The position numbers were made by a program, and so were the translations under genes. Below are positions 10,767-61,769 of a stretch of 64,000 bases of DNA, piece after piece (position 1 is the first letter of the stretch; every line of letters starts with the position of its first letter). The DNA comes from Microbotryomycetes sp. JL201 (lineage: Eukaryota > Basidiomycota > Microbotryomycetes). The notes below the pieces were generated by a model, which was not told where the DNA came from, made no database searches, and worked only from the letters and a program-made list of their open reading frames with translations. Location: the NCBI GenBank assembly GCA_033819885.1, contig JAQYUZ010000017.1, positions 186,001 to 250,000 of the forward strand, written 5' to 3'.

Positions 10767-12614
10767 ATGATGTCTTCTGGCGAGATCTGGCGCTGTGAGT
10801 GTGCAATGGTTTGAGGAGGCTTAGGGCGGGAGTTGAAGAATCTCGATCAACCGATGCAGCATTCGCTGTACAAGAGAGGACAGACATTGGATGGTATATC
10901 TGTGGCATCATGTTTTACAAACTTGGGTGGGAATTCTTTAATGGGTCGATTACGGCGCTCGCCACCGACCGATTCAACGCTGCAAGTACATTCACCAAGC
11001 TAGGCGCCGCACAAGGACTGAACCAGGCGGCGCAAGTCTTTGGATCCATAGCTGCGTCGCCATTGATTCACGCATTTACCACGAGAAGCGTTCTTTCAGT
11101 CACTGTCGTGTTTCTTGCGTTCATGACCACGATTTTGCTCATTGTCGATGCCGCTACTGGCGGACGAATCAAATCGGTCGACTCGGATCAACCGTCTTAC
11201 GGCACTTGGAATCCGAACCTGATTTTTTTCGTTTGGACCGTTGCCGGCGTCGCCTGTAAGTCTCTTCTGCCCCCCGAAAGTGCAACGAGTGCTCAAGCCA
11301 AGCAATTATAGTCGGAAGTATTGAACTCGTTCGCCGTGTGATCCCAGCCGACATTGTTGGTGGCAACGTCGCAAAGTTGCGTCGAATGGACGCTGCAGTC
11401 TATGTCTGGTATCAAGTGGCAGGTACAGCTGGGGCTTTCGCATCTTCAGCAGCCATATCTCGATTTGGCAACAATTACTCGTTCATCTTGTCGCCAATCC
11501 TTTTTGTCATGGCCGGCTTGATCTGGACTCGCATGTCTGCCACTCGAAAAGCGCCAGACGCGACTGATTGCGAGAAAGATGACAGCAACCTCGGAGACAG
11601 GCCAGGTCGGGTGTGCTTGCTGTTTCGCCCTGGCTACCTATTCCTCAAGTCTGTCGGGTACGGCGTGTGGGTTGTCATGTCCCATAGGCGGTTCGTCTGG
11701 TTATTTCCAGCCTACTCAATCGCTCTGTATCTGCATCGCTTTCTCGAATCGTCAGTGGCCCCAGCCTTTGCGCGTCGCGTGTTGGGCCAGTCGGCTTGGT
11801 CGCAAATCATCATCGGCGGATCCAACTTTGGTGAATTACTGGGCGCAGCGTCCGTCTTCGTCTTGAACGATCACATCCCAACGCCAATACCGTGGCTTCG
11901 GTTCGATGCATTGATGCTCAACCTGATCTGGGTCTTGCCACATTTCTCCCGCGTGCTTGCGCCTGAAGTGTCATCGGCGTGGAAGGCAAGCCTACAGCAG
12001 ACCCGCACAAGCTTTACGCTGATCTTGTCTTGACAACAGTTGGCAATCTTTTTTTGTCCCTTGTCCATAGGATGGTCGAGCGGTGACTGCTCTTTGACAG
12101 CGCAAGTTAAATCTCGCTTGTGCATTCATCAAAAGGTTGTCCTCACGTCTTTTCGCTCCGCAGCTACATCCAATCGTCACTCAACGACTCTGCAGACTTT
12201 CGACGACCGAGAGACGTTTCGGCGCTTGGTGCCACCATGGCATTTCTCTTCTCCTCGTACATCATTCTCAACGCTGTCTTGTCAACGTTGCTAGGCAGAG
12301 TCATTGATCGAGACTTTGAATCCAACGGCAACATCTACGCCGCCCTGCAGCAAGTGGGCGGTGTGCAATTCTCTGTCGGTTGCGCCATCATCCTCATGGC
12401 GTCGCTCGTGCCGGTCGGCGCCTTCGCTATCAATCCTCAAGTGCTCAATCACCAACTTTTGCCCGGCCAGGAGTACGATGAAAGTGCTGTCGGCCTCGAG
12501 AGAGGGAGCATGTCGGCAGGACTAGATCAAGGAAGTGGACGTCGTGAAGCCAGCTGCGTGAAGTCACAGCCGCCGACATTTGGCGATGGGCAACTGTTTC
12601 GTAATACATCGTAG
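10767..12614 (+). CDS. MFS transporter, paralog 1 (contains a GC-AG intron)
   Basis: Predicted 539-residue major facilitator superfamily transporter with about 12 hydrophobic segments; the substrate is unknown. Exons are 10767-10794, 10860-11255, 11312-11985, 12040-12082 and 12136-12614, summing exactly to 540 codons. It starts MMSSGEIWR and is collinear with its neighbour at 13597. Shared blocks include MFYKLG.EFFNGSIT.LATDRFN, RRVIPADIVGGNV.KLRRMDA and ALYLHRFLESS.APAFARRVLG. The third intron has a GC donor (AAG|GCAAGC at 11986), where the paralog has GTAAGC. The spliced proteins align without a gap across the site (WKLAIFFCPLSIGW against WIIAATFIPVSYGW). The C-terminal tails differ, suggesting divergence after a tandem duplication. 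Confidence 0.85.
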
Positions 12615-13596
12615 GGCACACCACTCTACATTATTCATAGCCTCAAATTGCTTCAATCGCATTGATACTGTCTCACACCCCTTTGCGACTTTCTCAGGCT
12701 CTCGTCTTGTAAGTGTCGTTCAGCAAGTAGTTTGCAAGGAAACTGGATGCACGCGAGGCCTTTGGCTGATTCTCTCCCTGCTGCTAGGTCATGCAGAGCC
12801 GGTTTTGTGGGCATGCGGGAGGGACCAACCAACTCCTCTGGCTATCACACAGCACGTTGTGCCGAGAGCGTCTCGATCAAAGTATGGGCTGGACAAGCTC
12901 TAGGCAGGTGAATATTGTCTCAGAAGCCTGGCCACAAGTCGAGCGCACGTTCTCTTAATCGATCAAGAAAGCACACGTTTACGAACTCATGCCTGTTTGA
13001 CGCCTTGATATCAAGAGTCCGCGTTCCGTTGCCACAATCGATGAAATTGCGCGGACTCAGGTTCTCGACATTGCTTTGTCAAACTTTACAAACGGGGTGA
13101 TATGATATATGTAGAACATGCGTTAAAGCTGTCTCTGAAGACTGCACGTGCTCCTGTCCAGGTGAAATGTGGCCATTCTATTCGGTGAGGGCTATTCGCC
13201 TTGCTTGAGTTCCTGACGACACTTCTGTGTCTTGTTAAAGGCCCCAGCCTGCCGCTAAAAATGAATGGATGTGATCGCCGTCTTGGCGCCGCACCGTCTC
13301 GGGGAACGTGCGCAGTCGGCCCCAGGCGAATTGCGCCCTCGTGTCTTGACGGCGCGTTCTGATTGGTCAAAGGTCGCGAAGGGAGTCGATCGTTGGCTCA
13401 AGGGCAAGCCATGCGAAAGTGAGGACAGTCGCCGTGCGGTCAGGTAACAAGCGCCGGCAATTTCACACGAACAGACGAGGTTCTGGACCCTTGGGCCACT
13501 GGTTCGTAGCGAAAAAAAAACCTAGAGCTGTCCCGTCTCGCACTTTGTCTTCTCCATATCAGCTGGTCCACGCTTCAAGCACTGAAACGAGTCACG
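12615..13596. other. Intergenic between MFS paralogs
   Basis: About 1 kb with the 3' flank of MFS gene 1 and the promoter of MFS gene 2. I see no remnant gene, direct repeat or mobile element. Confidence 0.5.
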
Positions 13597-16129: not shown

Positions 16130-17631
16130 CTAGCTGACCATGACGAATACGAAAAAAGTAAAGATGAGAGCAGCAAACACCTATCGATTTAGGCGTCAGC
16201 TCCAGAATGCCACACTTTGCATATTCAGTGGGACTCGCCTTGAGCATCAACCACCGATTCGACGAGACTGAAGCGTAGTATCGTAACAGTTCGCTACGAG
16301 TAACAGATTAGACTCGATATCGTTCTGATGGCGATGAATACTCACTTTTGCGCTCCTGACACGTTCGTAGCAATCTCTTCTGTGTCTGCATCGATCCGAG
16401 TGACCGTTTCACCCTGTATCGCGACCATTGTTGCCAACTGGGAAAAGATCTGCCCTAATTCTGCAACTGTAGACTCGATCGTCTCGATGGCCGAACTTCG
16501 CTGGTTCATATATTGATCCTGTTTGTCGGTTGTCAGATGAGAAACTATTCTGGACTTTAATTGCAAACTCACATCCGCCGGCTGCTGCGCCAATTCCATC
16601 TGCATGTAACCCTGCTCAGACTGGCCCGAACCTGTCTGACCCGGGCCGCCCAGGTCGAGCGCAAGGAAGTCTGCTTGCTGCCCGTTGAGTTCTCTCCCTT
16701 TGCCCTTGACTCCGCTCGGTGTCGTCGACTGCGATCTGTATAGAGGCGAGTCTGATCGCAGCGTGCCATCACCCGCGTTGGGATTGCGGGAACGCAAGAC
16801 TTGGAGTAAGTGTCAGGGCTTCAGAATGTGGGAGTCGTCGGGCTCTGATGTCTGTGCTCACCTGATGTTGGTCCTGACGGGACGTTGCTTGTACTGTGCA
16901 TGAACTGCTCTGTCCGATTTCGAGATGCCTTCATGTTCTGAGGATTGGCCCGAATTCAGCGCCCGCCACCTCTCACTCAGGCTCAGACGCGCGTACCTGC
17001 GTCCTGATCTCGAGTACATCTTTGAATCCGATACTTGTGTCTGCAAGCTTGCTCTGGAGCATCATGACGATGTTGTTGTTGTGTTCAGAGACTTGCTTTG
17101 ACGTGCTGGCGGTGCCTGCGCCGATTTGCGTCTTTGTGTACAGTTGAAGCTGCCCGATCTGTTGATTCAGCGCGGCGATATCTTGTTTGATGATGTATGT
17201 TAGTTCCTGTGTATTGCGGGTGTGCACGAGCGTGTGCGTCAGCGTGTGGGGAGCGTTCGACCGTCTGCTGGGCGACGTACGCTTATTTCGACGGGCCGGT
17301 CGTCAAACAAGGTCTTGCGCTTGGCCACTGGATGATGTTTCAGAAGGAAATGTCAGCCCCTGCGTGCCGTGGCTGCGCCTAAACGAAGGAGCGCCATTCA
17401 TGACGCCGCCTCGTCGCGTGACGCACGCTGTGCCAGCTTCTCGAGCTTGTACGTCGTCCCTTGGATGTCTTTGCTGATCTTTGCTGCCATTCTAGCAAAC
17501 TCTGAGCGCTGCTTGGTTTTGTCATGTTGCAGGAGCGGCTTGCGGTGCTCGTTCGTGGCTGTCAGCCGCAGCGACGCAGCTTCGACGCACGCCCGGAACT
17601 CGTTTGTCCGATCTTTCAAGCTGGACGACAT
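16130..17631 (-). CDS. SED5: Syntaxin-5/Sed5 Golgi t-SNARE (contains a GC-AG intron)
   Basis: Qa-SNARE for ER-Golgi and intra-Golgi fusion. The start at 17631 gives MSSSLKDRTNEF, matching the conserved DRT.EF N-terminal peptide that binds the SM protein Sly1. Next come the Habc region (LEKLAQLAKRKTLF, ELTYIIKQDIAALN) and a Ser-rich linker. The SNARE motif ends MNQRSSAIETIESTVAELGQ...QIFSQLATMVAIQGE, whose central layer Gln is typical, followed by NELLRYYASVSSNRW. The C-terminal anchor (VFAALIFTFFVFVMVS) lies in a 51-nt last exon at 16130-16180. It is joined only if the preceding donor is GC (AAG|GCGAGT, intron 16181-16238). GT alternatives lose the anchor frame. Other introns are GT-AG. Confidence 0.93.
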
Positions 17632-20497: not shown

Positions 20498-20954
20498 CGA
20501 AATATACTGTGATGTTACAAGCTGACCCTTTGATTTCTCAAAACAGGATGACTGGCAGACCTGTCCCATCCGTCTTGCCGGGTGTCGTTTGTAGACAGCC
20601 CGCATTCTAGATTCAAGTCTCGTGTCTTATAGATTCGTTTTTCTTGTGTGATACCCATTTGGTATTTCAGTTGGAGTTTGCGGTAGTGAACGATAAACGG
20701 CCTCCTGGAATCGTTTGTCAATTACACCCAGTGATAAGTACGTTTACAAAAGGGAACCGGGATAGTCTGTTGCGCCCTATGATTATTGTCGGGCCAAGGT
20801 GAAGAGGTCATGCACAGAAAAAAGAAAGAAAAGGAAAGAAAAAAAAAAACAAAAGAAAAGGGGGGGAAAAAAAAAGGGCGCGGGCTCTCGAAAGTCGAAA
20901 ACGAGAGGGGAAGACGAGGAATGGGTATTGTCATATCGCTTGACCGCCGAGTTT
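20498..20954. other. Convergent 3' intergenic region with purine tract
   Basis: This holds the 3' flanks of GH5 (plus) and the PSR1-like gene (minus). A nearly pure A/G tract lies at 20816-20879. No gene is recognised. Confidence 0.5.
20816..20879. repeat. Purine (A/G) low-complexity tract
   Basis: About 64 nt of almost uninterrupted purines on the plus strand, including long A runs and a run of seven or more G. It is probably a slippage-prone simple sequence; triplex formation is possible in principle. Confidence 0.7.
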
Positions 20955-22808
20955 TCACACGACGATAGGCAAGTGTTGGTACAGGCCAGCGTCGAGGACG
21001 CTACGCACGTCTGGCACTTGTTCGAGGTCAGTAAGGAATGGCACGAGGTCTGTCAGCTCAGTGTCGTGTCTGTCAAATGACAATTCAGCAACCTGTCTTT
21101 CGTCGCTAGACCTTGGACTGACGGATCATTGAACCAGGACGAAATCGGAACAGCGTTATTGACGTGGAATACATAAGATGCCGGCGAGTTGTCTATGATG
21201 ATGCAGTCGGCCATTTGTCGACCAAGCTGGGACAAGTCCTATCAACACAGATTGCACGATCAGCCATCGTCCGCCACGGTCCAGGTTGGTACTCGACTTG
21301 CCTTGACGTAATTTCCCTTGTTGTTGTAGCAGCTTTCACGGAACAATCTATGCTTGACAACCTGGTGCACGTCTAGTTGATCCAAGACCGGATCGGCGTA
21401 TTTAGACAAGGACGCGGTAAAGACGACAATCTCGTAGATTTCGCCCATCGCTTTCAAAAAAGCTAATATCGCTTATTGTCAGCATTATTCTCCGAATTTT
21501 GCAAAAAGCCCGACCAACCATCGACGCCAGGTCGCTTGATGACATAGACATTGTGGTACTGGTTTTCAATTTCGACCGGAACGACATAATCTGCTTGATG
21601 GACCATCTGCAGCGGCGATTCAGCCCAAAGCCAAGCAGGACAAATCTTCCGAACCCACTTTAAAGGACGAGTGAACGAGCGTCTCGTCCAAATCGAGCAC
21701 CAAGCACTTTCTGCCCTTCATGTCGTCCGAGATGTCCTCCAAAAGCGGATGCGGCAAGCCGTCCTAAATACCCGGCTTTCCGTCAACTCGCCACCCAAAT
21801 CAACACGCCACAAAGACTGACCTCTCCAATCGGAATGCCCACGCCTCCCCGTGCGATCAGAGATTGCTCCTCGTCTTCCTCGTCTTCGTCCTCTGATTCG
21901 TCAGTCTCGTCGTCCGTTTCGACAATCGCCATGCCAGGCTCGGGAACTTGCGTTATAATGCTCTCTGGGGCCTTGCCGCTTCTCCTTCGTTTCGTTTTGG
22001 CCGGCGTCGAAGGCGAGCTGGCTTCCTTACCGGGCGCCATTACTGCACCTGCGGTCACGCCGCCGGTCTCTTCAATCGGCAGCGGAGTACCTTCTGGGGA
22101 CGGACCGGAGGCGACTGGTGCGTCATTCTTTGCCGTGTTTGCATCCATGGGTGCGATACCGGCATCGCGACCTTTTTCGCTTTGCGTAGCATCGTCAAGA
22201 TTTGTCTTTTCCGTCAAGGGATTCGGGGCTGTAGTCGGAGCAGCGATGACGGCTGCCTTTTCGTTCACAGCAGGCTCTTGTGCTTGTGACGTGGTTGCTG
22301 GTCGTACAGGCTTTTTGCGATCGTGCTCGTCGTCGAATGCGCTCGACGATACGCAGCAACCGAACAATGATCCGAGAAGGCCACGTTTCTTGGGTTTTGA
22401 TGGTGGTTGACGAGCTGATGTGGATGCATTCTGACGGCCAGATGCAGCTTGTCCGTGTTGCGTGCTCGATGGCCGTTGAGCGGTGTCTGACGGAGATGCC
22501 AAGACTGGCGTCGTGTCGTTTGACTTGTGAATCGAGCTTTTAGTGTCGGCGTCGGTCACAGCTGCCGAGCTTGCCATCACACTGTTGTTAGCTAGTGAAG
22601 ACGTTGTTGCGGGCTGTGCGGGCGCTGTAGGCGGTGGGCCCAGACTTGTTGTTGTTGGCGCGGCGGGGTTGATTGATGTCTCTGTCGCGGTGCGAGGCGT
22701 TACCGGGCCATCAGAGTCCAGGTTCGCATTGTTCATTGAGACATCACCGCTTCGGTCAGCGTCTGTGGCCATTGCAGCTTGATGCGGTGCAGTGGACCCA
22801 CGAGACAT
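20955..22808 (-). CDS. PSR1: PSR1/SCP-type CTD-like protein phosphatase (contains a GC-AG intron)
   Basis: HAD-superfamily Ser/Thr phosphatase of the FCP1/NIF family. The long N-terminal region (first exon 22808-21822, 329 codons) is disordered and Ser/Thr/Ala rich. It carries a [10 protein letters not shown] motif like the palmitoylated cysteines of yeast Psr1/Psr2, and ends in an acidic patch. The catalytic domain has [10 protein letters not shown] (nucleophile DxDxT), [41 protein letters not shown] and [18 protein letters not shown]. The intron 21239-21301 has a GC donor (AAG|GCAAGT) and yields the family sequence GNYVKDLSQLGR. An in-frame GT alternative would insert three residues there. 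The frame is open a little upstream of 22808 without ATG, so an extra 5' exon is possible. Confidence 0.9.
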
Positions 22809-23620: not shown

Positions 23621-24773
23621 ATGCCTGGCTCACCTTCACGCAAGGATGTTGTGATATCGTTTGGGCAAGCCAAGATGAGCGCATGGCTTTATCCTGCTCC
23701 CAAGAGCTCAAAATTGCCTGGACCCGCGGTCGTGCTCGGCCACGGTTTGGGAGGTGTCAAGGAGATGCGATTGGATGCGTAAGGGAGCCTGTGCGATAGT
23801 AACGCTGCAAGATCTGACAATCTGATCATCCCAGATACGCCCAAAAGTTTCAAGAGGCGGGATATCTCTGCGTCGCGTTCGATTATAGAGGATTTGGCGA
23901 GTCAACTGGCAGCGAGCCACAGATATTGGACTGGAACATGCAGCAGCAGGACTGGCATGTCGTTGTCGAGTGGACGCGCCAGCTTCACGAAGTCGGTGAG
24001 GCGCCAGCCGCCACCACGCTACACGCCAACTCTCGGTAGCGCTGACATGAGGACCTGCTGACTCGACCGACAGATCCAGAACGGATAGCAATATTCGGCA
24101 CATCGTTCGGGGGAGCTCACGCCATCGCTTACGCCGCACGCGATAAACGAGTGAAAGCAGCTATTTCGCAATGCCCATTCACTAGTGGACTTCATTCGAG
24201 CATGACTGTCGGCTTGTCTGTTTTGCCGCGCCTCGCATTGCTGGGCATCCGAGATCTACTTTTTGGGAAACCAAACGATTTTGTCCCAGTCAAGCTGTTT
24301 GGTCCACCTGGAGAAGGTGGGGCTTATGCAAAAGTCATCCCGTCCCGCGGCTGACAGTCTGTTTTTCTCTTCAGTGGCTCTCATGAACGCACCGGATGTA
24401 GTTTCGGGGATTATGAAGCTCGTGCCAGCAGAAAAGCAGGACTCGTATCCGAGGGTCGTTGCTGCTCGCATCGCGCTCGAAATTCCACGGCTATATCCCG
24501 GTGCACAAGCGAAGAACGTTGACTGTCCTATCTACTTTGCGGTTTGCTCCAAGGACACGGTCGCGCCGCCAGGTCCAACAAGATCATACGCCAAACAAGC
24601 GCGAAAAGGCACGATCAAAGACTATGATGTGCGTTCTCGTAGCTCCTTGTAGCCTATATGCAGGCTGACATTGCACTACCTAGTGCGGTCACTTTGACAT
24701 ATACGTCGGACAGCTTTTCGAGGAGGCTAGCAAGGACTATGTCGCATTTCTGCGCAAACATGTGCCTATTTAG
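23621..24773 (+). CDS. Alpha/beta hydrolase (dienelactone hydrolase / S9-like fold)
   Basis: Predicted 301-residue cytosolic serine hydrolase of unknown substrate. Five exons (23621-23778, 23835-23995, 24074-24316, 24375-24628, 24684-24773) sum exactly to 302 codons, all GT-AG. The oxyanion region is VVLGHGLGGVKEMRLD. The strand-turn-helix YRGFGES follows. The nucleophile elbow is GTSFGG (Ser117). The acid is Asp248 in CSKDTVAPPGP and the base is His275 in CGHFDIYVG, so the triad is complete. There is no signal peptide. Similar fungal proteins accompany polyketide clusters, but no such cluster is seen here. Confidence 0.85.
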
Positions 24774-27985: not shown

Positions 27986-30977
27986 CTAACCATACCAAGC
28001 TCTCGGAGCCGAAACCGGCACGCCCGCTGCCTTGGAAAGACTTGACTGGCGACCTCTTGGCAAAGGCTTGCTTTTGAGCGCTGCTGATCCGACTAGTCCG
28101 TCCTCTTTCAGCTTTCCGACATCACTGAGAGGCCTGATGTCCATGTCGTGGATCGACAATGAGAACCCTTCACCGTTCTTGTCGAGTGAGCCAACAACAG
28201 CCCGAATTGAGAAACTGTGGTCACAATCAGCCAATGGCGAACGGTCGAGTAATGCAGGACTTGCCTGACTTGGGCGATGCAAATGTCCAGCGCTTGTAGC
28301 TCTGTTTTTGGCACCTCGATCGAGCCGGTCAACTCCAGTAACTCTTCGCCATTTGAGCGCAACAAGCGAGCGCTCTCCTTCACCAAACGCTGGGTAATGC
28401 ACAAGGATGGAGAAGCCCATGGCTGTTGCGAACTTTGTGGGTCGGCCGATCGCAACACCAATTTGCGGGAGATCGAAACTGTCACTCTTGAATTCAGCGC
28501 TTGCGCGAGTTTGCCGCTATCAATGGGCATTGAACAATCGAGCACGAATCTAAGGCGGTACTTGATGTCGTACGTCAAAAGGTTTTGATGGCTTGGAACC
28601 AAGACGCCATAGGCGAGCTGAGCATTCTGAAATGGCTTGGCCCGAGTTGGACAAATTTTTTGAGTCAGGCCAGCGTGAAGCGCCGGTGCATTTACGTGTT
28701 CGGATTTCGATTTGCAGAACTTGACCGCAGGGCTCATTTGGTCTTGTTCCTTGGTATTCTCGAGGGCAAACGGGATCTTCAATCTGTGGTCAAAGCGGCG
28801 GGTAAGCCGAACGGTTTCACTGCGCGGACGCGGTCTCTAACCGCTCACTTCTCTGTGCCTCCCAACCTGAATCGCGTCGGCCGTCTCCCAAGCAGCTCGA
28901 AATAATCTGGGCCCGGAAAAAGTCAAATTGTGCGGATCTCATTCTTTGGAGACTCTGTCGCCACCAGACGTACAGCCCACTCTGACATTAGGATGCGAGA
29001 ACGTGGATGGCAAGCCTCTGACTTTATCATGGCAGGAACAAGTGGCCGAATCAGGCATCGGCATGGTGCAAGTCAGAGTGCGTCCTGCAGCAGTCACGGA
29101 GTCGCTGCGCTTCGTCTCAGGCAGCAATGTCACGTTGAGAACCAGAAAGTCATGCGTCAATGGTGGCTCCTGATGGACGAATTCTGAGCCGCCGCGAGCA
29201 TGGTGAAGCTTCTGATCGCCATGACTCACTCCCGAAACATGACAGTTGCCAACTAAGCGTATTTGTAGCGCTTCATAAGCCGCAGTAGATTCCAATTCGA
29301 CTTTCAGCTTGATCGGCTTCCCCCTTCGAATGATACATGTCTTGTCGAGAGGTGGCGAAACGGTCAAACGAGCGTGCTTGAAATTGAGAGTTCTGCTTTT
29401 AGACTTCTCGCGAGCAAGTGAACCATTGTGCAAAGTCATTGAAGTGTCTGCTGTACTTGTACTGGCTTGACTATCAGTCGAGCCGAATCGAGCACGGTCG
29501 CGGGTTGATCCGGGAGGGGAAGAATCGGCAGACGAAAAGCTGTGCAGTCTTTCACTACGAGTCATCATGCTTGAGCATGACTCGTCGTGATTGTATCGTT
29601 TCTGTACAGACTTATTTCCAGCTACGAAGTTTGTAGCAGGCGGGTCCCCGCAAGTGTTGACGGTGAACGACGGAGCAGCTCGTCTTGTTTTTGGCGGCAG
29701 AGGGAACACCAAGCGAGGTTCTCGGAGCTTCGAATGCTCCTCGGAATCGGCAAGCCTGCGCCTGCGTGGCATGGCGGCCCCAGCATCTAAAGCGTCTTGA
29801 ACGGCTTTGCGCCACACTGCCAGCTCTCGCTCACTGCACCGAGCATCATGGCTGGCTGATGTATAGTCCTGATGATCAGAGACATTATCGGGCTGAAAGA
29901 GTTGTCGTGGACTGAGTGAGGACATCGGTCTGGGGCTGTCCGAATTACTCGCCCCAGTGAGCGTGACCAGGGGGTGCAGTGCAAACAGCGGTCCGTGATC
30001 GCTGACTGGATCGAGTGGATCAACGAACGATTCGTTGTCCGAGTCCTGATTGATTGAAGGGGAAAAAACGAATTGATCGACAGAGACTGAAGTCGGTATC
30101 CCGGTCCCGCGAGGCGGAGTTGCTTCAGAAGTTGCAAGTGACTGTATGTTCGTGTGCTCCTCCTCTTCCACTGAAGGGAGAGCACGAATTTTTGAGCCTG
30201 TTCAACCAGACATTGATCAAATGCGGGGCTACGCGACTATGCGAGGACGCACCAGGTCGCGTTTTGGGAAATATGGCCGGCTGTGATGGCTCTTGTGGTA
30301 GGGTTGGCTCTTCGGACACCACTGGCAGCAGTTCTATCCTGCTTCTTTCGAGTTCCGGCACTAGGCACTCAGGCCATGTTGAATCTTGATCTTGCACGTC
30401 CACTCCTGGCAGCTGAATTGGGGAGCACCAGACTGGCGAAGGTAAAAAATTAAGTAGTTCTTCAGCCTTATGAACATCCTCATTCGCAGCATTGGGCAAA
30501 ATGCCTAAGGATCGCGCCACAGTTGCGAACTCGGAGTCGGCCGAATTTGGCGGATGTTGGCAGAAAGTGTGCTGGGATGCATGATCAAAAGACATGTGTC
30601 GCCTGGACTTTGGTGTTTTCTTGGATAGATCTAGCTTGATACCTTCCTTTGGCGCGAAAGCAGAGTCGAGTTTGTCGAGAGTCGTGTTCACGAGGAGCAT
30701 GTTGGTCCTTCGTGATGGACGCCAAGGACTCTGTCCTTTTGATTGTGTTTCGAGCCGTCCTGTGACGGCTGTTTCCGAGACGTGAAGCGAGTCTTGGGCG
30801 CTCGCTCTTGTCAAGCTCGCGAACTACAGTCGCTAGCTATACTTGCCGTCGATACGTTGTTCAGAAACGGACAAGCCTCTTCGCCAGTGAGTCCGCAAAG
30901 AATTGTTGACACGAAGGCGTCTGTTTGCCAGAAGCGCGTGCTGACTTCGGGCGCACACCGTTAAACAAGTCCCCCAT
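27986..30977 (-). CDS. Arrestin-like regulatory protein, tentative (contains a GC-AG intron)
   Basis: A long, multi-exon Ser-rich protein. The start at 30977 (MGDLFNGVRPKSARASGKQ) is joined by a GT-AG intron to exon 30823-30253, then to a long exon beginning at 30170 (VEEEEHTNIQS). The middle has a beta-sandwich-like stretch (FKHARLTVSPPLDKTCIIR, GKPIKLKVELESTAAYEAL, IRLVGNCHV). A later block (LTYDIKYRLRFVLDCSMP, VTVSISRKLVLRSAD) resembles arrestin C domains of fungal ART adaptors. The last intron (28215-28264) has a GC donor (GTCAG|GCAAGT) and joins CIAQV to SFSIRAVVGSLDKNGEG in phase. The fold assignment is by pattern only. The middle exon borders (about 28700-28950) are not resolved. Confidence 0.6.
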
Positions 30978-34566: not shown

Positions 34567-34788
34567 ATGTATCCCGTTCGAAGGTGTTGGATATGGTTGT
34601 TCTCTTGCTCTCTCTCTCTATCTCTCTGTTTATATTTGCCGTACTGTGTGTGCGCGCAGCTGTCGTCGATTTTTACAAATATGGTCTGAGTATCTATTGC
34701 TTGTACACGATTGTGCGTGATTTTGGTGTATGCTGTTTCCGATGCAGCCGCGTCTTTGCCCCGCCAGACGGTTTGCGCTCAGACGACT

Positions 34789-37700: not shown

Positions 37701-38357
37701 GTCGCACGCAGTATACTGGAGCATTACGACAGGTCGAGCGGCATGAGCGGACGGGTGTCGCGCAAGAACAGGGAGACATGTGAGGTCTTGTTGAGGCTCA
37801 AGGAGGCCATGGTCTCGTACGAGCAGAACAAGCTCGATAGTGCATTACAGGCGAGTGCAAAAGTGAAGTGCTTCCATCCGAACGGGTCGGCTGACAGGAG
37901 GCTCTCGTTTGCAGACAATCGAAGACATCAACATTATTCCGTTGCATGGTGACTTGCCGTCAATCATTCGGGCCGCAGACGATTTCAAGGATTTGGACGA
38001 TGCCATCATTCGCAATTTCGACACCATTTTGTTGACGACGATGAATATGATCTACAAAGCGCACCAACAACTCAAGGACAGTCCGTTTGGAGATGCCAGT
38101 CGGCAACAGGCAAGTCTGCGTCCGCTTGTCAGGCGCTGCGACCGCGCACTCATACTTCTTTGGCCTGCAGCGCATGGCCGAGTTGCGGCAGAAAGCGAGG
38201 TCGTTGATTACGTTCGCCGGCATGGTCAGTCGCATCTTGCAAATGACGTGTCTCTTGAAATGTGTGCTGATGCCACGAATCGTGCCTGCAGCTTCGTTTC
38301 CGGTTGACGAACGAGACGTATAGCCAGTTGACGAGACTGGATGTTTTCATCAGATAG
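34789..38357 (+). CDS. NIC96: Nucleoporin NIC96/NUP93 (with two probable GC-AG introns)
   Basis: Linker nucleoporin of the inner ring of the nuclear pore, an alpha-solenoid protein of about 900 residues. About 12 exons follow from MAGTTLSSLLEQS at 34789. Typical blocks are FDLPAIQLGLDQIEQHSRRI, AYLLASGGVNADQL, WARIYYLLRAGYTKEAL, YKHALFKLIGR, TEDWLWFQLSLVRE, GPGEAAHERYGLRDLAK, YLHAQYQTDAVHFAIALAYYG and ELRQKARSLITFAGM, ending LTRLDVFIR. Two introns near the 3' end use GC donors: CAG|GCGAGT at 37851-37914 and CAG|GCAAGT at 38110-38170. Both join conserved family sequence (SALQ to TIEDINIIPL, and SRQQ to RMAELRQ). In each case an in-frame GT donor a few codons downstream exists as an alternative. 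Confidence 0.93.
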
Positions 38358-38671: not shown

Positions 38672-41600
38672 ATGACGCCGACTGAGGCAGCTCACTGTGC
38701 GACATGCTCTTGCTACAGTATAGACAACTCGTGGAGCTTGCCAGTCCGCGCTGTCGGCAGCACTAGCGTTGCCAAGCTGTCGTTTGGTTCGCAGGGGGAG
38801 CTCCTCAACACCACTCCCAGTGCTGCTGCACTATTTTTCCCCCCTGCCGACGGAACGATTGCTAGACGTGCTTCAGAACCAGTTCATTCCGCCTATTTCC
38901 TGTCTTCCGATGCGACAGGGGACTCGACCGACTTGCTGGACAAACTCGCGCACGACTCGAGCAAGCTGCAATGGTCGGAAACGTTGACGGTCGAATTGTG
39001 GCGAGGCAAGGTCTCTCACGACGTTCGCTCTTCAATGCTGTTTGATGTCGTTGTGGAGAGAGTGATGCCGGCAGAGCTCTCGGCTTCCGTCCCGTCGGAG
39101 CAAAGCACAATACATGGATGTGAAATGGCGTCGAGAAGCGCTTCGACTCCGCCTTCTACCTCGTCGTATTCGCAGCAACAACGGAACGGGCACCTTGCCC
39201 CCTCAGTGCGTTACGAAATGATTGTCCTGCGTCCGAGTGTTATACAGGCGACAGATTCAGCCAGAGCGGCCGCGAACGCTCAGTTCCAAGTCGGCTCAAA
39301 ATCGACTCCTGTGCTTGAAACATGGACGAAACTGAGTCGACAGGCCCTGAATAGGCTGACGTCGACCTGGCACGAGCGCGAAGAAAGGCCCAGCTCTATG
39401 GAAGTTTACAGCGCGCTAAAACATATGACTGCTCGAGTCACATCAGACAGAGACACTGAAGAGCAATTCAGCAATGACGCCCAAGGCTACGATGTTGAGA
39501 TTACCCAGGGAGACAGCACCATGTCGACCCTGCCTCAGATCTCGGATGGCAAGCTCAGTCCTATCGGCCTGGCCGAACTAGTTGATCATTTGCCTACAAT
39601 CGTGTTTACCTCTGCGCCTGACGGTCAAGTCACCTGGCTCAACAAGGCTTGGAGCGAATTTACAGGTCTCGGTCCCGTGGAATCACTTGATTATCAAACG
39701 TGGCAGAGCATGTTTAACGAAGAGGATCTCGTACGCGTCATTCCAATCTGGGTCAACGCCATGGCAACAGGCGAGCCGTTCAGTTTCGAGTATAGAGTCA
39801 AGAGACGAGATGGACAGCAGAGGTGGTGCGTGTGTGCCGGCCGAGCAGTCAAGGACTCGGACAGCGGCAAAGTGCTCAACTGGTGCTGCTCAATCGTCGA
39901 GGTCGAAGGACTCGTCAGAGCCAGAGCCGAGGCCTTGCGCGTCAAAGAACACATTCGACGCGTACTTTCGACCGCAGATATCGTCCTGCTTTCCGTCGAT
40001 TCAGACACTCTGGTCACGTTCTTCGAAGGCAATGTCGAGCTAGCGAGATCCCTGGGTCATCCGGGAGCGCCTTCGCAGTCGACACCAATCATTGCTGGCC
40101 AGACAAGGCTTTGCGACCTGTTTGCTGGCGACGAACGGTTGGGTCAAGCTGTTGATCAAATTCTCGTTGGACGCGAGCACAGTGTGTCGCTACTGTTATC
40201 GTTTGGGAACGATGCGCAGCACGTGCGCTTTCAGGCGAGTCTAGGAGGAGATGGTGTTTCGAAACAAGCTGACGGGGATATTCGCTTTTGACGATAGCTC
40301 ATGTCCCTAGAAGGAAATAGTCCTGGATCGTCGGCTGGCGTCGTGATCATTGCCACGGATGCCACGCTCGGCATCAAAACCGAGGCAGAGTGGAAAGAGA
40401 GTTATCGAATGCAGGCGGAACTACGAGCCTCAGAGACGGCTGCGAACGAAGCCAATCGCCTCAAGTGAGTTGTCAAGCACGAATCCTTTCCTTTGTGCAG
40501 ACTGTAACGATGTCTCGCGCGCTACAGGACAGAGTTTTTGAGTGTGATCAGTCACGAGATTAGGACGCCGATTGCCGGCGTGCTGTCCATCTGCGAACTC
40601 TTGCAAGCGTCGCCCGACCTTAGTCAAGAGCACCGATTGCTTGTCCAGAAGGCCGCAAAATGCGGAGACAACTTGCTCGAGCTCGTAGGAATGGTTCTCG
40701 ACGTCAGAAAAGTGGAAGCTGGAGAGTTTGAATTGGAAGAAGCGCCCATCAAGGTTGCAGACATGCTCGAAGACGCCAGATTGTTCTCGTTGGCAGTGAG
40801 CCAGAAGGTGAATCAACGGGCAACATGGTGGTTTATTCGACAACTGACGATGAAGCGTTGTCTACAGCATTTAGCGTTCCGTGAAGAGGTCGGGCCATGT
40901 TTTGATGGGTTCTTGCTCGGCGACCGCTTGCGGATCAGGCAAATCTTGGCAAACGGCTTGTCGAATGCCATCAAATTCACCAAGAGCGGTTTTGTTACTC
41001 TACGACTGCGGCAAGAGGATTCTGCCGTGGAAGACGATCGTGTTTGGCTCAGGTTTGAGATTGAAGACAGTGGCGAGGGTATTCACGCCGATGTTCTCCC
41101 GACGCTGTTCCAGCCATTCAGGTGAGCTCACACTTACGCGGAAGCTGCATGGTCCGGATGACTCATTGCTTCCTCTAGACAAGCCGATGCATCTACTGCA
41201 CGGAGGTTCGGTGGAAGCGGTCTCGGACTTGTCATTTCGCGCAAGTTTGTCGAACTGATGGGAGGCGAGGCGTGGCTCGAGTCGGAGTTGGGTAAAGGAA
41301 CGAAGATGATCGTTCGTATGCCTCTCCGACGGGCAACGTCACAGACATGCAAGGCAGTCAGCCAGGAGAGTTACGTCTCTCCCGAAACGACGGCGTTGCA
41401 ACATCGAGCAATCGCGGCCAACCGCAGGGCGTCCATCACGTCGATGCCTGACAAGGTCAAGATATTGCTAGCGGAAGACAACGACGTGCTCCGAGAGATT
41501 TTGACGCGGACTTTGGAAAAGCGCAATTTTTACGTTCGCGCGGTCGAAGATGGAGCCTCTGCTGTGGCCGAAATACACCAGAACAGGTACGATCTAATCT

Positions 41601-47988: not shown

Positions 47989-49649
47989 ATGCGCGCCCAA
48001 AGGTGCTTGCTCGTATTCGTTTGCATCACTTCAACGTGTCGAGCTCTCCATTCGAAATCCGACTTCGTGTCGACAGCTAGCTTGGCACCAAACGAGGGCA
48101 TCGGTACGCAAAGGTATGATTTGCATGCTGTTATGACGTTTGAACGAGCCGTACCAGCCGGTAAGCTACGAGGCTGGCTCTCGAGTAAAGGCTTTGTGCC
48201 ACCGTTTGGGCGTGCTGAATTTGCGCTGTACTGTGACAGGACTGTACCGTCGTCAAGATCGCAGCAACAACAACAACAACAACAACAACAATGATAACTT
48301 CGGTGGCAGTGAAGACCCTCAAACAAGCTTGACACTGGACTCGAGTCAAGTTCAAGATGGACTTGCCTTGGATGGCACACAGGACGATCCGAGTAAGCGC
48401 CGCTTGATGCGTCTCGCAAATCAAACAGCTGACTCGCAATTCAACCGCAGACGTTACACCCAGCGCGACATCTGTCAACAATTGTGAGCTGTCTCAACTT
48501 TGTCAAGCGTGATGCCCGATCGACCCTGCCTCGCAGTCATCAACTTTTGCCTCACGAAGGAAAATCTTGTGAGTTGAGGGCGCCGAGTGACCCAACTTTC
48601 GTCGCCTGAGAGGTCTCCTTTCTTGAACAAAGCCGCTCACCAATGGCGCTCAAGTCAGAGGCGGCTCATGTAACCCGACTCCGATGGGCGTGATTGCTGC
48701 CCAAAACAGAGCCCCCACTTGCAAATTTGTTTTTCCAAAGAACTTGGACGTCATTCAGGCAGACCAGGACTTTACGATTCAGATGCGCATTAATAATGTG
48801 AGGCTCGCTTACGGGCTATGTTGCAGACAGCTGACTGCTGTCTGACGTGTGATCGGCGACAGCTTGTCACCGGCAATTTTGTAAGTGAGACAGAATAATC
48901 GAGACCGATTTCCTCCTGCTGAAGGAGTGCATTCCTGTAGGTGAATGCCCAGAGCAACTATTTCGCCGCGCCGCAAGACACCAACAACAATGGCATCATC
49001 ATTGGCGAGTCGCTTCGCAAAGTGCCGGGCTTTGCCAAGTCTGATTGCTTTGGGTCACACAGGTCATTCTCATGTTGTCATCGAACAGATAGACTCGCTT
49101 GACACGACGGCAGTCTCGGATTCGACCGAATTTGCATTCTTCAAAGGACTGAATGAGCCTGCGCAGAACGGAATACTGTCAGCCGACGTTCCAGGTGGTC
49201 TGCCTGCTGGCATTTACAAGGTAAGCAGGCCGGTGTGAGATGTGAGAACAACAAGCTTGACGGCATCGAAACCTGTAGATGTCGTCCATTAATTCGGCAG
49301 CGAATCATCAGCCAGTCTTGGTTGGCGTTGCTCAGCACGGCTCGCTTGATGATGCAGTCTACTTTGTAAGTGCCCGAGTCTTGCTCGCTCTTGATAAAGA
49401 CTTAGAGCAAAGTCGTCACAGACCGTGTCTGAGGATCCTAACCAAGAACAAATCAGTGGCGTCGGGAACATAAATTCTGCTCCGATCGGCGCTTCTGCAA
49501 CGGCGACTGCTGTCAGCGACACGGCGCTCGCTCCCTTGGGCACAGGACAATCCCAAAGAGGCGGTCGGCGTCGGTCTGGATCAGGCCGTCGCGGCTCGTC
49601 GAGATTCAATAACCGCCACCGTCGAGCACATGAACAGGATCCTACGTGA
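47989..49649 (+). CDS. Secreted protein of a basidiomycete family (contains a GC-AG intron)
   Basis: Predicted 350-residue extracellular protein. Ten exons (47989-48103, 48240-48392, 48451-48483, 48537-48568, 48633-48797, 48863-48880, 48941-49004, 49063-49220, 49279-49365, 49422-49649) sum exactly to 351 codons. It has a signal peptide (MRAQRCLLVFVCITSTCRA), then an Asn run encoded by a CAA repeat. The conserved domain follows: FINFCLTKENLPLTNGAQV, GGSCNPTPMGVIAAQN, NFVNAQSNYFAAPQD, GHSHVVIEQI, FAFFKGLNEPAQNGILSADV and AVAQHGSLDD-type QHGSLDDAVYF. The tail is basic and Gly/Arg rich. I recall this family from mushroom proteomes, often mislabelled as ribosomal protein S17. Exon 6 is 18 nt. The intron 49005-49062 has a GC donor (TTG|GCGAGT). 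Function unknown. Confidence 0.85.
48265..48291 (+). repeat. (CAA)9 microsatellite inside a coding exon
   Basis: Nine CAA units read in the AAC frame as a poly-asparagine run near residue 45 of the secreted protein. Length variation between strains is likely. Confidence 0.9.
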
Positions 49650-53597: not shown

Positions 53598-53671
53598 CGT
53601 CTTTGACGTCGTGTCGTGATCCAAAAGAGCGCGCTTCTGTACTTTCGCTCCCCACAACGCCCACCCGAATG

Positions 53672-54559
53672 TCGGCTGCCGCTCAAAGCTCTTCCCGCGC
53701 GGCAGCACACCTGCTTGCTGCCCGCTCACTGGTACGACCGCTCGCGCTAGCGGCTCGTCAGCAGCTGTCGGTCCCCGTTCGACGCGAGCTCGGCTGCCAG
53801 ACGGTCATCCGCCTCGACCGCACGCTTGCCACTCGTTCGTTCTCGGCCAGCTCGACTGTATGCAAGGCCAGGCTCGACTCGAAATGGACCAGCGGCGAAC
53901 CAGTGACGTACGACGAGCTCAAGCCGATCACTCAGAGCCCTAATGATGTCGGTAGTTGCATGTCCGACTCGTCTACTGCGCCAACTGATACCGTCTGCAC
54001 TTTGCTGTCTGCTGTCCACAGGACATCCTGATCGTCGGCAAGTAGATTCACTCTGTGCTCATTTCGCTGGCAAGCCGTGCTCAAAATATCGTCTTGCTCC
54101 GGTGTAGATGTTCGTGAACCATCAGAGGTTGCACTTGGATCGATTCCCTCGTCGGTCAACCTTCCTCTGACAACGTTTGAAAAGAGCTTGGCGATGGACG
54201 AAGGTCCGTCTGTCGCTCGCTCGGTGGCGTTCGCATTTGTCTCTCTTACGACTGATTGACAATTTTTGAATACACTTGGCAGGCGACTTTACTCGAACTT
54301 ATGGATTCCACAAACCTAGCAAGCAACAACCCATCATCTTTTACTGCAAGGCTGGCGTGCGGGCACAGACGGCCGTTGAACTGGCAAAGCGCGCTGGCTA
54401 CAAGGTGTAAGTGACGTCGGGGCTGTCCTGCCATCGATCAGAATTGGGCTCAATCAAGTCTCGAGCGATGTTGCTAACGTGGGTTGTTTCAGCACACGCA
54501 ACTACAAGGGCAGTTATGATGACTGGATCAAGCGCGACGCCAAGAACGGAGACGACTGA
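53672..54559 (+). CDS. Rhodanese-domain protein, mitochondrial, copy 1 (contains a GC-AG intron)
   Basis: Predicted 192-residue single-domain sulfurtransferase. Five exons (53672-53947, 54022-54037, 54108-54203, 54283-54406, 54493-54559) sum exactly to 193 codons. The N-terminal 70 residues (MSAAAQSSSRAAAHLLAARS, Arg/Ser/Ala rich) look like a mitochondrial presequence. The domain has VTYDELKPI, DILIVDVREPSE, GSIPSSVNLPL, FYCKAGVRAQ (active-site Cys151) and NYKGSYDDW. Exon 2 is a 16-nt microexon. The donor after it is GC (GTCG|GCAAGT, intron 54038-54107); no GT donor gives the DVRE frame. The tandem copy at 55033 has GT at the homologous intron. Substrate unknown; thiosulfate or persulfide transfer is likely. 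Confidence 0.9.
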
Positions 54560-55032: not shown

Positions 55033-55822
55033 ATGACCGGCCAACAAGATGAACAAGCCTGGCAACAGGGTCAAGTCGTCGATTTTGAAGAGATGCATCA
55101 GATCAGTCAATTTGGACACGACTCTGTAAGTGGCGCGTCATCATCGTCGTCGTCGTTGTCTCCTTGCTTGCGGCGTTGATCTGAATGAAGCCGGTTGCAC
55201 ACACTCACACCGAACAAACGCATTCACATGTTGCATTTGACTGACACGTGTATTTATCTGTCCCAAACTTGGCCTGTCCCCCACGTAGGACATTGTCATC
55301 ATTGGTTCGTCTGTCTGTGCCAAGAGCTACCACAAAGTTGCACAGCTGATCCGAGACGTTGTGTGCGGCAGATGTGCGAGAACTTGCAGATTACGCCGCA
55401 GGACACATTCCTCACGCCGTTCATCTGCCCTTGAGCATTTTTGAAGCGTCGTTTGCGATGGATCAAGGCGAGTTGCCACCTACGAGCAAGTTTCTTGATT
55501 TGCTGACACGCTTACTTGGCAAACACAGACGTGTTTGCAAGGACGTATCGTTTCCCGAAACCGGCGTTGGACCAAAAGATTGTGTTGTACTGTCGATCGG
55601 GAAGGCGCAGCGGCTTGGCAGCAGACATTGCTCGCGGTTGTGGGCACAAAAAGTATGCGCCGTCGAACAAGTTGACGGTAACGTTTGAAGCTTACACTCG
55701 GTACCGTGTTTCTGTCATGCAGGGTGCGAGAATACAAGGGGAGTTGGAACGAGTGGTCCGTCAAGATGAACCCTGAACGACAAGACCCTGCAAGCGGTCA
55801 GCAGACATTTCAGGCGGATTGA
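55033..55822 (+). CDS. Rhodanese-domain protein, copy 2 (contains a GC-AG intron)
   Basis: Predicted 142-residue sulfurtransferase. Five exons (55033-55125, 55289-55304, 55372-55467, 55529-55652, 55723-55822) sum exactly to 143 codons. Exons 2, 3 and 4 are 16, 96 and 124 nt, the same lengths and phases as in copy 1, and the active-site Cys90 (LYCRSGRRSG) sits at the same place in exon 4. There is no presequence (MTGQQDEQAWQQGQVVDF), so it is probably cytosolic. The third intron has a GC donor (CAAG|GCGAGT, 55468-55528), while copy 1 has GTCCGT there. The active-site loop C-R-S-G-R-R differs from C-K-A-G-V-R of copy 1, suggesting different substrates. Confidence 0.88.
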
Positions 55823-56145
55823 AGCAACAACAGGATAGGCTGTCCGCATGGCCAGGAATGTTTTGGCACCTGTCGAGTCGACCCTGAAGGACAATACGGA
55901 ACGGAGAGGGACGAAGTGCTCGGACCTTTTTAATTTTGTTCTGTTTCTGATTGTCGTCTCGTGGCAAACGATTCTTTTGGCTGGTTGCAATGGGGCTTGC
56001 TTGTTGCTGGCGTTCCCGCGAAGGACAGACAGCCTGATCCTGTTTGATCGTTATCGCGCTCGGGCGTGCGCCCCGAACCCGGCGGGCTCATCTCGTTTGC
56101 TTTTCCCAGTCCATCGCGAGCGTGTCATCGTTCACTCGCCCCGCA
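55823..56145. other. Intergenic, upstream of UPRT
   Basis: About 320 bp with the promoter of the uracil phosphoribosyltransferase gene. No other feature is seen. Confidence 0.5.
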
Positions 56146-60159: not shown

Positions 60160-60322
60160 CTAGAACTTGTAGACCTGTTGGGACCGATGAAAAAATGAAG
60201 AAAATGTTAATGTCTCGTAACAGTGACTCGCCGTGTCCGAAGCAGTTCGCGTAGACAAATTATGCCGCGGCTGAATGCTCAACCGCCGAGCGCGACGCCC
60301 TCGGCGTTCTGTGACATGCCGC

Positions 60323-60367
<45 letters not shown>

Positions 60368-61769
60368 CGGCTTCTAGCGTTCGCAGCATGCAAGAGGCGC
60401 AAGATTCAAGCACTTGCCTGGTTTTCAGTGTAGCCCAAGTCGGCAAGCAAACCCTTGAGCTCGCCTTGATCTTTCGGCGAGACCTTGTTGCCTGAAATCG
60501 CGTTCATCTATAACAGTCAACAAGGAAAAGTTCCGTCAGCTGGCAGTATTTGCATCTGGAACAAAATAATGCGATCCGGCATGAGCGACTGACCATGCCA
60601 GGAGGACCGCAGACAAAGATCTTGACGCGCTCTCCGAATGCAGGAGCCGGCGCGTTTTGAGCCAACAACTTTTGGTCAATGTAGCCTGTCGATTCAAACG
60701 TGCCGGAGAGAGTAGAGTCAGCGCTTTCAATCTCATCATCGCAAACGAGCGCGAGACTGACCGGTCGGGCCCTGCCACTCTTTGCCAGCCTTGTCGAGCA
60801 CAAAGACATTCTTCATGCGCTCTGGGAATTTTTTCGCAAGCGACTCCCACTCCTTGCGCAAGAGAATATCTTCCTCTGCAATGTTGCCGTACACGAGCGT
60901 CACCTTTGTCTTGTCTTGGGGGTTTGAAAAGATGGCTTGGGCGACTATCATCCAATAGAAGCCGGTCAGTGTACGCAGCGACCTATCGGAATAAAATTTG
61001 CAGCTGTACCCACCTTGGTACATCGGAGTGATGCCAGATCCACCGCTGATGAGCACAACGTGTTCGAATTGATTCGGCTTGTAGGCAAATTTGGGAAGCG
61101 GGCTGGACGAGAGCGGCACGGATGCGTGAGGGTCAGGATTCGAGTGATGTTCACCTGCGCTGCTCTTTGGCGGAGGGGCCTCTTTCGCACTAACCCTTTG
61201 AAGGCAAGTTCTTGGCCTGGCTTGAGGTTATGGATGTGGTTTGTCATTTTGCCTTCGGGATATTTCTTGACGAGCAGTTCAATGTATCCTTCTGCATCTG
61301 GAGGAGAAATTTGTGTATAAGGTCGCAAGACTGGTTTTTGCTTGTCGTCCTGGCAGTCTTCTTTGTTGACAGCCTTGACCAACAAGGCCGATGCGACGGG
61401 CGTGGCTGCAGCCGTGCCTTCTGGCAGTTTGAAAATAAACTTTGCCGTGTTGTGGTTGTAAGGCTCGACCTTGTCGAGCTTGAAAGTTTTCCATTCGTCT
61501 GGGTTCAATGCCGATGGCAACGTGGCGGGTTGCACGCCAGAGTGGACCGACTTTGCCTTGTCTTGAGTGGTGGAATAATAGTATGCACCAGCGCCTACGA
61601 GACCTGCCGTCAAAAAGTACAGCGGTGTGTTGCTGCTGCCCTTGGCCGCCGCTGATGACGGCGCTGTCGAGTAGGCACGAATCTGCGAGCGTACGAGCAC
61701 AAGAAGGCAAGCCAGCAAGCTAGGTCAGCCCGAGACAATCTGAGGTTTGCAGCCTGGCCGAGACGACAT
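60160..61769 (-). CDS. MCR1: NADH-cytochrome b5 reductase, mitochondrial type (contains a GC-AG intron)
   Basis: FAD flavoprotein reducing cytochrome b5 with NADH. The N-terminus has [14 protein letters not shown] followed by a single membrane segment ([17 protein letters not shown]), as in yeast Mcr1. The FAD motif is RPYTQISP with [13 protein letters not shown]. The NADH motifs are [13 protein letters not shown] and CGPPGM. The end is [16 protein letters not shown] joined to VYKF, the family's usual C-terminus. VYKF lies in a 15-nt terminal exon (60160-60174), reached only through a GC donor (CAG|GCAAGT, intron 60175-60417, 243 nt). The start is uncertain: ATG 61769 spliced by a GTCTCG donor to IRAYS is my choice, and ATG 61774 is an alternative. 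Confidence 0.9.
60326..60367. repeat. 42-nt T homopolymer inside MCR1 terminal intron
   Basis: An uninterrupted T run on the plus strand (A run in the MCR1 transcript) within the 243-nt last intron. Its length in the assembly may be approximate because homopolymers are error-prone. Confidence 0.9.

What the first reader, a model, noticed from the sequence alone, without database searches (positions are those of the whole stretch)
11986..60417. Ten probable GC-AG introns in nine genes: an unusually high rate
Tracing frames by hand, I find introns whose donor must be GC to keep conserved protein sequence in phase: 11986-12039 (MFS1), 16181-16238 (SED5), 21239-21301 (PSR1), 28215-28264 (arrestin-like), 37851-37914 and 38110-38170 (NIC96), 49005-49062 (secreted protein), 54038-54107 and 55468-55528 (rhodaneses), 60175-60417 (MCR1). 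Every donor fits G|GC-A/G-A-G-T/C, the strong U1-pairing context known for GC-AG introns. My hand count of placed introns is about 110, so the rate is near 9 percent. Fungal genomes usually show around 1 percent. This suggests a lineage with relaxed or altered 5' splice-site recognition, perhaps reflected in U1 snRNA or U1C.
Basis: partly seen in the sequence, partly recalled or inferred. Interest (0 to 1): 0.82.

Follow-up and report, generated by a model that had tools for sequence, protein, structure and literature searches.

The report
Fungus rich in GC-AG introns
In this small fungal genome roughly one intron in fourteen is predicted to begin with GC instead of the usual GT, and the start signal that matches the splicing machinery perfectly is avoided, so GC starts look like one of several ways of keeping that signal from being too strong.

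Summary
The ten GC donors are well founded: every claimed site reads G|GC[AG]AG[TC]...AG. A self-trained gene finder not given the list predicts nine of ten exactly. The tenth (MCR1) rests on the protein end VYKF. Homology searches clearly support five of ten junctions. The window is no cluster: 10 of 136 introns there are GC-AG against 32 of 454 in 203 kb elsewhere. That is about 7% (42 of 590, locus bootstrap 5.4-8.9%), not 9%, against a fungal mean of 1.0% (PMC7072748). The 14 other dinucleotides, given the same chance, total 10. The proposed cause is not supported: the one U1 gene found has a normal 5' end; U1C and the U6 ACAGAGA box look normal. The oddity is wider. Donors without any defect against U1 (G|GTRAGT) are depleted (23 seen, 82 expected), one-defect donors are in excess (272 against 203), and genome-wide G|GCAAGT patterns outnumber G|GTAAGT about 4:1. 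That cap is inferred; no RNA data and no comparison fungus were available. A known kind of intron, at an unusual rate and setting.

The parts
11986..12039 (+). GC-AG intron, G|GCAAGC, in an MFS transporter-like gene
   Evidence: Predicted exactly; in-frame stop if retained; MFS_1 match of 22.3 bits (below the cut-off of 33.4) with it, none for the GT-only form
16181..16238 (-). GC-AG intron, G|GCGAGT, in SED5 (syntaxin-5-like), just before the C-terminal hydrophobic anchor
   Evidence: Predicted exactly; SNARE domain matched to its last profile position, residues 292-344, with the junction at residue 331; GT-only gene model has 313 residues (not itself searched)
21239..21301 (-). GC-AG intron, G|GCAAGT, in a PSR1/FCP1-like phosphatase
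   Evidence: Predicted exactly; gapless alignment to CTD small phosphatases across NYVK|DLSQLGR; NIF domain 175.9 bits against 166.3 for the GT-only form
28215..28264 (-).
   Evidence: Predicted exactly; frame and coding score only; no Pfam match with GC splicing (GT-only form not searched)
37851..37914 (+). GC-AG intron, G|GCGAGT, in NIC96
   Evidence: Predicted exactly; alignment to yeast Nic96 has no gap at SALQ|TIED; Nic96 domain 231.8 bits against 185.7 for the GT-only form, both introns together
38110..38170 (+). GC-AG intron, G|GCAAGT, in NIC96
   Evidence: Predicted exactly; alignment to yeast Nic96 has no gap at RQQ|RMAE; the GT-only form loses the end of the domain
49005..49062 (+).
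   Evidence: Predicted exactly; frame and coding score only; no Pfam match for either form
54038..54107 (+). GC-AG intron, G|GCAAGT, in a rhodanese
   Evidence: Predicted exactly; RDL2 aligns without a gap across LIV|DVREP; Rhodanese 50.7 bits against 44.3 for the GT-only form
55468..55528 (+). GC-AG intron, G|GCGAGT, in a second rhodanese
   Evidence: Predicted exactly; alignment to YOR285W without a gap at MDQ|DVF; Pfam does not separate the forms, 50.9 (GC) against 51.1 (GT-only)
60175..60417 (-). GC-AG intron, G|GCAAGT, 243 nt, in MCR1 (cytochrome b5 reductase), before the last four codons
   Evidence: Not predicted by the model; splicing gives ...GYTENQ|VYKF*, reading through ...GYTENQASA*; the rest of the protein is a clear b5 reductase, but that alignment ends before the junction. 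That the family ends in a motif of this kind is recalled
12102..12163 (+). possible further GC-AG intron, C|GCAAGT (weak)
   Evidence: In the strict set, but only 0.8 nats better than the next parse
40235..40297 (+). possible further GC-AG intron, G|GCGAGT (weak)
   Evidence: Predicted only with a higher GC prior, not in the strict set

Best explanation
These are ordinary U2-type introns whose donor carries C instead of T at +2. Shown by prediction: they make up about 7% of introns across the sampled genome; their donors are otherwise near-perfect (strict set: -1G 83%, +3R 100%, +4A 95%, +5G 100%, +6Y 100%), with branch site, CAG acceptor and length like those of GT introns; GT donors of the same genome avoid that full context. 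Inferred: pairing of the donor with U1 is kept in a middle range, so that U1 binds but can be released to U6. Most donors therefore carry one or two defects, at -1, +3, +4, +6 or +2. A C at +2 weakens U1 pairing while leaving the contacts with U5 (exon end) and U6 (+3 to +6) intact, so it is a permitted single defect, and in the G|GNAAGT context it is commoner than T. No change in the U1 5' end, U1C or U6 box is needed or seen.
For: GC against 14 control dinucleotides 42:10. Defects among -1G, +2T, +3R, +4A, +6T in 552 donors with G+5: none 23 seen, 82 +- 6 expected; one 272 seen, 203 +- 10; three 36 seen, 72 +- 6. The same depletion at zero in a decode that never allowed GC, 23 against 67 +- 6 of 520. 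-1G and GTRAGT avoid each other in GT donors, odds ratio 0.19, p 2e-12. Genome-wide matches with a CTGAC...CAG tail (reversed-pattern control in brackets): GGCAAGT 326 [70], GGTAAGT 104 [37], GGAAAGT 41 [54], GGTCAGT 688 [59], GGTGAGT 317 [36], GGCGAGT 287 [85]. Mean predicted duplex with U1: GT -5.7, GC -5.05, GC donors read with T -9.4 kcal/mol. U1, U1C, U6 box, a METTL16-family gene and one LUC7 gene found without visible oddity. A 'Goldilocks' balance of U1 binding and release is in print (PMC9436412, passages).
Against: No RNA evidence. The cap is a statistical inference from 548 predicted GT donors, and part of it (-1 against the intron side) is the known U5/U6 seesaw; U5/U6 Spearman is -0.23 here. 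Negative association within the intron side, which a U1 cap predicts, is significant at 0.01 only for +3R/+6T (odds ratio 0.44; 0.62 with p 0.015 in the GT-only decode), while +5G/+6T is positive in the GT-only decode (2.2). In the GAGT context GC does not exceed GT (net 202 against 281). The strong context of the GC set is partly built into the strict model. No other eukaryote genome was available, so it is not shown that this genome is more extreme than its relatives. Yeast data warn that long-lived U1 binding does not follow duplex energy, and an A/A mismatch at +2 prevented it there (PMC9436412, passages).
Confidence: 0.55

Rival explanations
1. Two 5' splice-site classes plus compensation: donors pair strongly either with U5 (exon side) or with U6 (intron side), and GC sites are the exception that needs both. 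Nothing about U1 strength is selected; GC introns are frequent by drift.
For: U5/U6 potentials are anti-correlated, Spearman -0.23, and GC donors score higher on both sides than GT donors. Human GC sites are described the same way (PMC11732430, passages). A METTL16-family gene is present and +4A prevails at 63%, as that model expects (PMC10581693, passages).
Against: It explains why GC needs the full context, not why C outnumbers T within G|GNAAGT (about 4:1 net), nor the frequent +3C donors combined with -1G (G|GTCAGT 43 of 548).
Confidence: 0.25
2. Mutation bias: T to C changes at +2 are tolerated when the rest of the donor is strong, and a C-rich mutation pressure drives the ratio.
For: High GC-AG fractions go with high genomic G+C in algae: 39.6%, 22.2% and 7.7% in the three most G+C-rich of 61 species (PMC3033335, passages).
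Against: G+C here is only 54% (window) or 53% (sample), and that paper finds the correlation weak outside the extreme species. Drift alone would bring C:T near the intron base ratio, about 1.2 at +7 to +12 (my inference), not about 4:1, and does not explain +3C or the avoidance of G|GTGAGT.
Confidence: 0.13
3. Altered or relaxed 5' recognition through a changed U1 snRNA or U1C, for example a second U1 with G opposite +2.
For: The overall rate is several times the fungal mean, which such a change could give.
Against: One U1 gene found by two searches, normal 5' end; U1C normal; only GC, no other dinucleotide, rises above control level.
Confidence: 0.05
4. Artefact: mis-placed introns, or a chance cluster in this window.
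For: Ten of the 42 strict GC introns are favoured over the next parse by less than 1.5 nats; unconstrained training also inflates control dinucleotides.
Against: Rate equal outside the window; controls with fixed settings; homology across junctions; genome-wide pattern excess for GC but not GA.
Confidence: 0.02

Closest known systems
GC-AG introns of fungi (PMC7072748, passages: mean 1.009%; Ganoderma lingzhi 1.85%, PMC11590231, passages)
   Same: AG acceptor, GC donor, assumed U2-type; strong donor context (for human GC sites -1G and +5G, PMC11732430, passages)
   Different: About 7% here; in the G|GNAAGT context C at +2 is commoner than T
GC-AG-rich algae Aureococcus anophagefferens (39.6%), Micromonas pusilla (22.2%), Chlorella sp. 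(7.7%) (PMC3033335, passages)
   Same: GC-AG far above 1%
   Different: Those genomes are the three most G+C-rich of 61 examined (69.5% and 65.9% given for the first two); this one has 53-54%
Two-class 5' splice sites, seesaw or 5'/3' compensation (PMC11732430, PMC10581693, passages)
   Same: Exon side and intron side of the donor are anti-correlated here too
   Different: Here the donor with no defect at all is depleted, and +2C, +3C and +4C are common single defects
Goldilocks balance of U1 binding and release (PMC9436412, PMC5779234, passages)
   Same: Predicts avoidance of donors that pair too well with U1; long contiguous pairing is very rare in S. cerevisiae
   Different: There from single-molecule biochemistry in an intron-poor yeast; here a genome-wide pattern in an intron-rich fungus in which GC is one of the outcomes

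Membership tests
GC-AG U2-type introns | GC at the donor and AG at the acceptor | tested here: met
   10 of 10 sites
GC-AG U2-type introns | Strong donor context, -1G and +5G | tested here: met
   10 of 10 sites; in the strict set of 42, -1G 83%, +5G 100%, though that set's model favours such a flank
GC-AG U2-type introns | Branch site, acceptor and length like the GT-AG introns of the same genome | tested here: met
   CTRAY motif in 81% of 42 GC and 64% of 548 GT introns, median length 59.5 against 62, C at -3 in 34 of 42 and 426 of 548; the model uses these signals for both
GC-AG U2-type introns | Spliced in vivo at these ends | not testable with these tools
   No RNA data
Lineage with altered 5' recognition (U1/U1C change) | U1 5' end or U1C differs from the conserved form | tested here: not met
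   a divergent extra U1 gene not excluded
Lineage with relaxed donor dinucleotides | Other non-GT dinucleotides also raised | tested here: not met
   14 other dinucleotides total 10 of 600, at most 2 each
Introner-derived introns | Sequence similarity among introns at different places | tested here: not met
   One pair among 590 introns, a 23-nt match, both GT
Two-class 5' splice-site architecture | Negative U5/U6 correlation | tested here: met
   Spearman -0.23, p 4e-8, 548 GT donors

The most novel reading that the evidence does not exclude
In this lineage the preference at donor position +2 is inverted wherever the rest of the donor matches U1 fully (clearest in G|GNAAGT): there C, not T, is the normal base, because splicing selects against donors that U1 cannot release. 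The GT rule would then be conditional on the strength of the rest of the donor.
Probability: 0.35. Interest if true: 0.75.

Novelty: new variant of a known kind. Interest (0 to 1): 0.55.

Why it matters
It offers a natural system for asking whether 5' splice sites have an upper limit of strength (the Goldilocks idea). Gene finders that forbid GC donors would mis-splice about 7% of introns here; at about 4.6 introns per gene (581 in 125 models) that would touch roughly a quarter of genes, by my estimate.

Tried and rejected
Tried and dropped. (1) Unconstrained EM for the donor dinucleotide: it raises GC to 57 of 591, but raises AG (60), CG (31), GA (28) and others too, so I use fixed priors and flanks. 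(2) A genome-wide rate from patterns alone: only relative counts are sound, since few introns fit the tail (4 of 42 strict GC and 0 of 548 strict GT introns fit the full GG[CT]AAGT pattern), overlapping ends are counted more than once, and the listed places are only the first hundred or so. (3) Introner origin: no families among 590 introns. (4) Altered U1, U1C or U6 box: not seen. (5) Naming the organism: I found no tool here that holds fungal genomes; the U6 intron is only a lead (see noticed). (6) Literature: six searches listed no paper whose title or abstract start reports a fungus near 7% GC-AG or avoidance of G|GTRAGT; the library holds open papers only, and Canzler 2016 and Kupfer 2004 are not held (titles from reference lists). 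(7) Other window sites predicted only with looser GC settings: 20485-20546, 29893-29952, 24730-25111, 31563-31875, 38323-38723, 40235-40297 and 56064-56109; I do not count them.
Full report
Observation. The ten intervals of the finding were read directly. All ten begin with GC and end with AG on one strand and have G at -1 and R-A-G-Y at +3 to +6. The window is part of a 17.15 Mb assembly of 92 contigs.

Independent test. I wrote a two-strand generalised HMM gene finder and trained it from scratch on the window, locus L001 and twenty 10-kb stretches from other contigs (267 kb in all). With GT donors only it settles at 125 genes, 581 introns, median length 63, a GCTGAC-like branch site and CAG acceptors. 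Then every dinucleotide was allowed as donor. With equal prior 0.005 and the GT flank, GC is used 31 times and each other at most 3 times, of 600 introns. With equal prior and the same strong flank for all (learned from the GC calls), GC is used 42 times and the 14 others together 10 times, of 600. Over the settings GC ranges from 21 to 52 of about 590-600. By score against the next best parse, 28 of the 42 GC introns and 4 of the 10 control introns gain 2 nats or more. Leaving flank and prior free gives 57 of 591, but the same freedom inflates control dinucleotides, AG to 60, so that number is not used.

Rate. In the strict set (prior 0.005) the window has 10 GC among 136 GT/GC introns and the other loci 32 among 454; together 42 of 590, 7.1%, bootstrap by locus 5.4-8.9%. 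One locus, L013, gave no GT or GC intron. The window is therefore typical. Published fungal mean: 1.009% (PMC7072748, passages). The tenth, in MCR1, was missed and is supported by the protein end VYKF; a citrate synthase GC intron (L019 8724-8789) with homology support is also outside the strict set, so the set misses real ones as well as holding weak ones.

Homology in the window. PSR1: gapless across the junction to CTD phosphatases, NIF 175.9 against 166.3 bits for the GT-only form. NIC96: no gap at either junction against yeast Nic96, 231.8 against 185.7 bits. First rhodanese: 50.7 against 44.3 bits and gapless to RDL2 at the junction. SED5: the SNARE domain reaches its last profile position with the GC intron; the two solved-structure alignments shown end before the junction. 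These five junctions I call clear. Second rhodanese: no gap in the alignment, but Pfam does not separate the forms (50.9 against 51.1). MFS gene: a weak, below-cut-off match appears only with the GC intron. MCR1: family ending recalled, the solved-structure alignments stop before it. The sites at 28215 and 49005 have frame and coding score only.

Homology elsewhere. Ten GC/GT-only pairs were compared, chosen mostly from the better-scoring ones. The GC form does better in 8: histone deacetylase (22.1 bits, below its cut-off, against none), short-chain dehydrogenase (88.7 against 56.2), K+ transporter (170.2 against 156), Na+/H+ exchanger (83.9 against 74.6), citrate synthase (106.1 against 104.8), Fungal_trans (28.4 against none), Arb2-like (48.0 against 36.5), and a V-SNARE whose C-terminal region appears only in the GC form (57.0; its N-terminal domain scores 66.0 against 67.7). 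One is level (DUF4149, 83.7 against 83.8) and one has no match. Citrate synthase also aligns across DPG|YMNTA.

What is unusual. The GT donors of this genome are themselves odd: +3 is C in 115 and +4 is C in 135 of 548. The donor that matches U1 fully is avoided. Among 552 donors with G+5, defects at -1, +2, +3, +4 and +6 were counted against column shuffles: none 23 (82 +- 6 expected), one 272 (203 +- 10), two 215 (181 +- 11), three 36 (72 +- 6); no shuffle of 2000 reached the first two values. A decode that never allowed GC shows the same, 23 against 67 +- 6 of 520. -1G and GTRAGT exclude each other in GT donors, odds ratio 0.19. Within the full context G|GNRAGT the strict set has 27 GC and 23 GT donors (8 and 3 in the window, 19 and 20 elsewhere).

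Genome-wide. Pattern matches with the tail N20-50 CTGAC N5-30 CAG over the whole assembly (both strands; reversed-pattern control in brackets): GGCAAGT 326 [70], GGTAAGT 104 [37], GGAAAGT 41 [54], GGTCAGT 688 [59], GGTGAGT 317 [36], GGCGAGT 287 [85]. Net of controls, GC exceeds GT about 4:1 in the AAGT context, is below it in the GAGT context (202 against 281), and exceeds it over both (458 against 348). The donor with a +3 mismatch, GGTCAGT, is the commonest of the six. These are matches, not introns; some overlap.

Machinery. One U1 gene, found by family and by its own sequence, 5' end AUACUUACCUUG. U6 has the normal ACAGAGA box. U1C aligns to U1C of solved structures, Leu13 present. One LUC7 gene and a METTL16-family gene are present. 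A divergent extra U1 is not excluded.

Mechanism. Mean predicted U1 duplex energies are -5.7 kcal/mol for GT donors, -5.05 for GC donors, and -9.4 for GC donors read with T. Part of the pattern, -1 against the intron side, is the known two-class seesaw (Spearman -0.23; PMC11732430, passages). The seesaw does not by itself explain why C outnumbers T in G|GNAAGT. Negative association within the intron side, which a U1 cap predicts, is significant at 0.01 only for +3R/+6T, and +5G/+6T goes the other way in the GT-only decode. The cap is therefore an inference of moderate confidence.

Novelty. GC-AG introns are known, and rates far above 1% are known in G+C-rich algae (PMC3033335, passages). Six searches of an open-access library listed no report of a fungus near 7% or of a genome that avoids its own full-consensus donor; I judged them from listings, plus passages of ten papers. 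I rate it a new variant of a known kind.

Noticed in passing
L022:1501-1683 (G000:C63:52479-52661): The U6 snRNA gene is interrupted by a 67-nt GT-AG intron directly after ACAGAGAA; without it the sequence reads as normal U6. Introns in fungal U6 are known (PMC5832005, passages). I recall them from Cystobasidiomycetes such as Erythrobasidium hasegawianum (lineage), which is a lead to the organism, not a test; a paper search for it found nothing.
   Followed up: partly
G000:C21 (218852 bases): Two pairs of identical pattern matches lie mirror-wise: 19048-19111(+) with 199742-199805(-), and 47168-47238(+) with 171615-171685(-); in each pair first start plus last end equals contig length + 1. The contig may be its own reverse complement over its length, an assembly artefact or a real giant palindrome.
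   Followed up: no
window and L001-L021, donors: C at +3 in 115 and C at +4 in 135 of 548 GT donors; G|GTCAGT is the commonest donor heptamer, 43.
   Followed up: yes
L028, minus strand: The METTL16-family gene is modelled with two GC-AG introns near its 5' end (G|GCAAGT and T|GCGAGC); not checked further.
   Followed up: no
L013 (G000:C13:20001-30000): The only fetched 10-kb stretch in which the strict set has no GT or GC intron.
   Followed up: no
window 34593-41836: The gene finder joins NIC96 and a downstream gene that looks (by eye) like a PAS/histidine-kinase/response-regulator into one model through a doubtful 401-nt GC intron; these are probably two genes.
   Followed up: no
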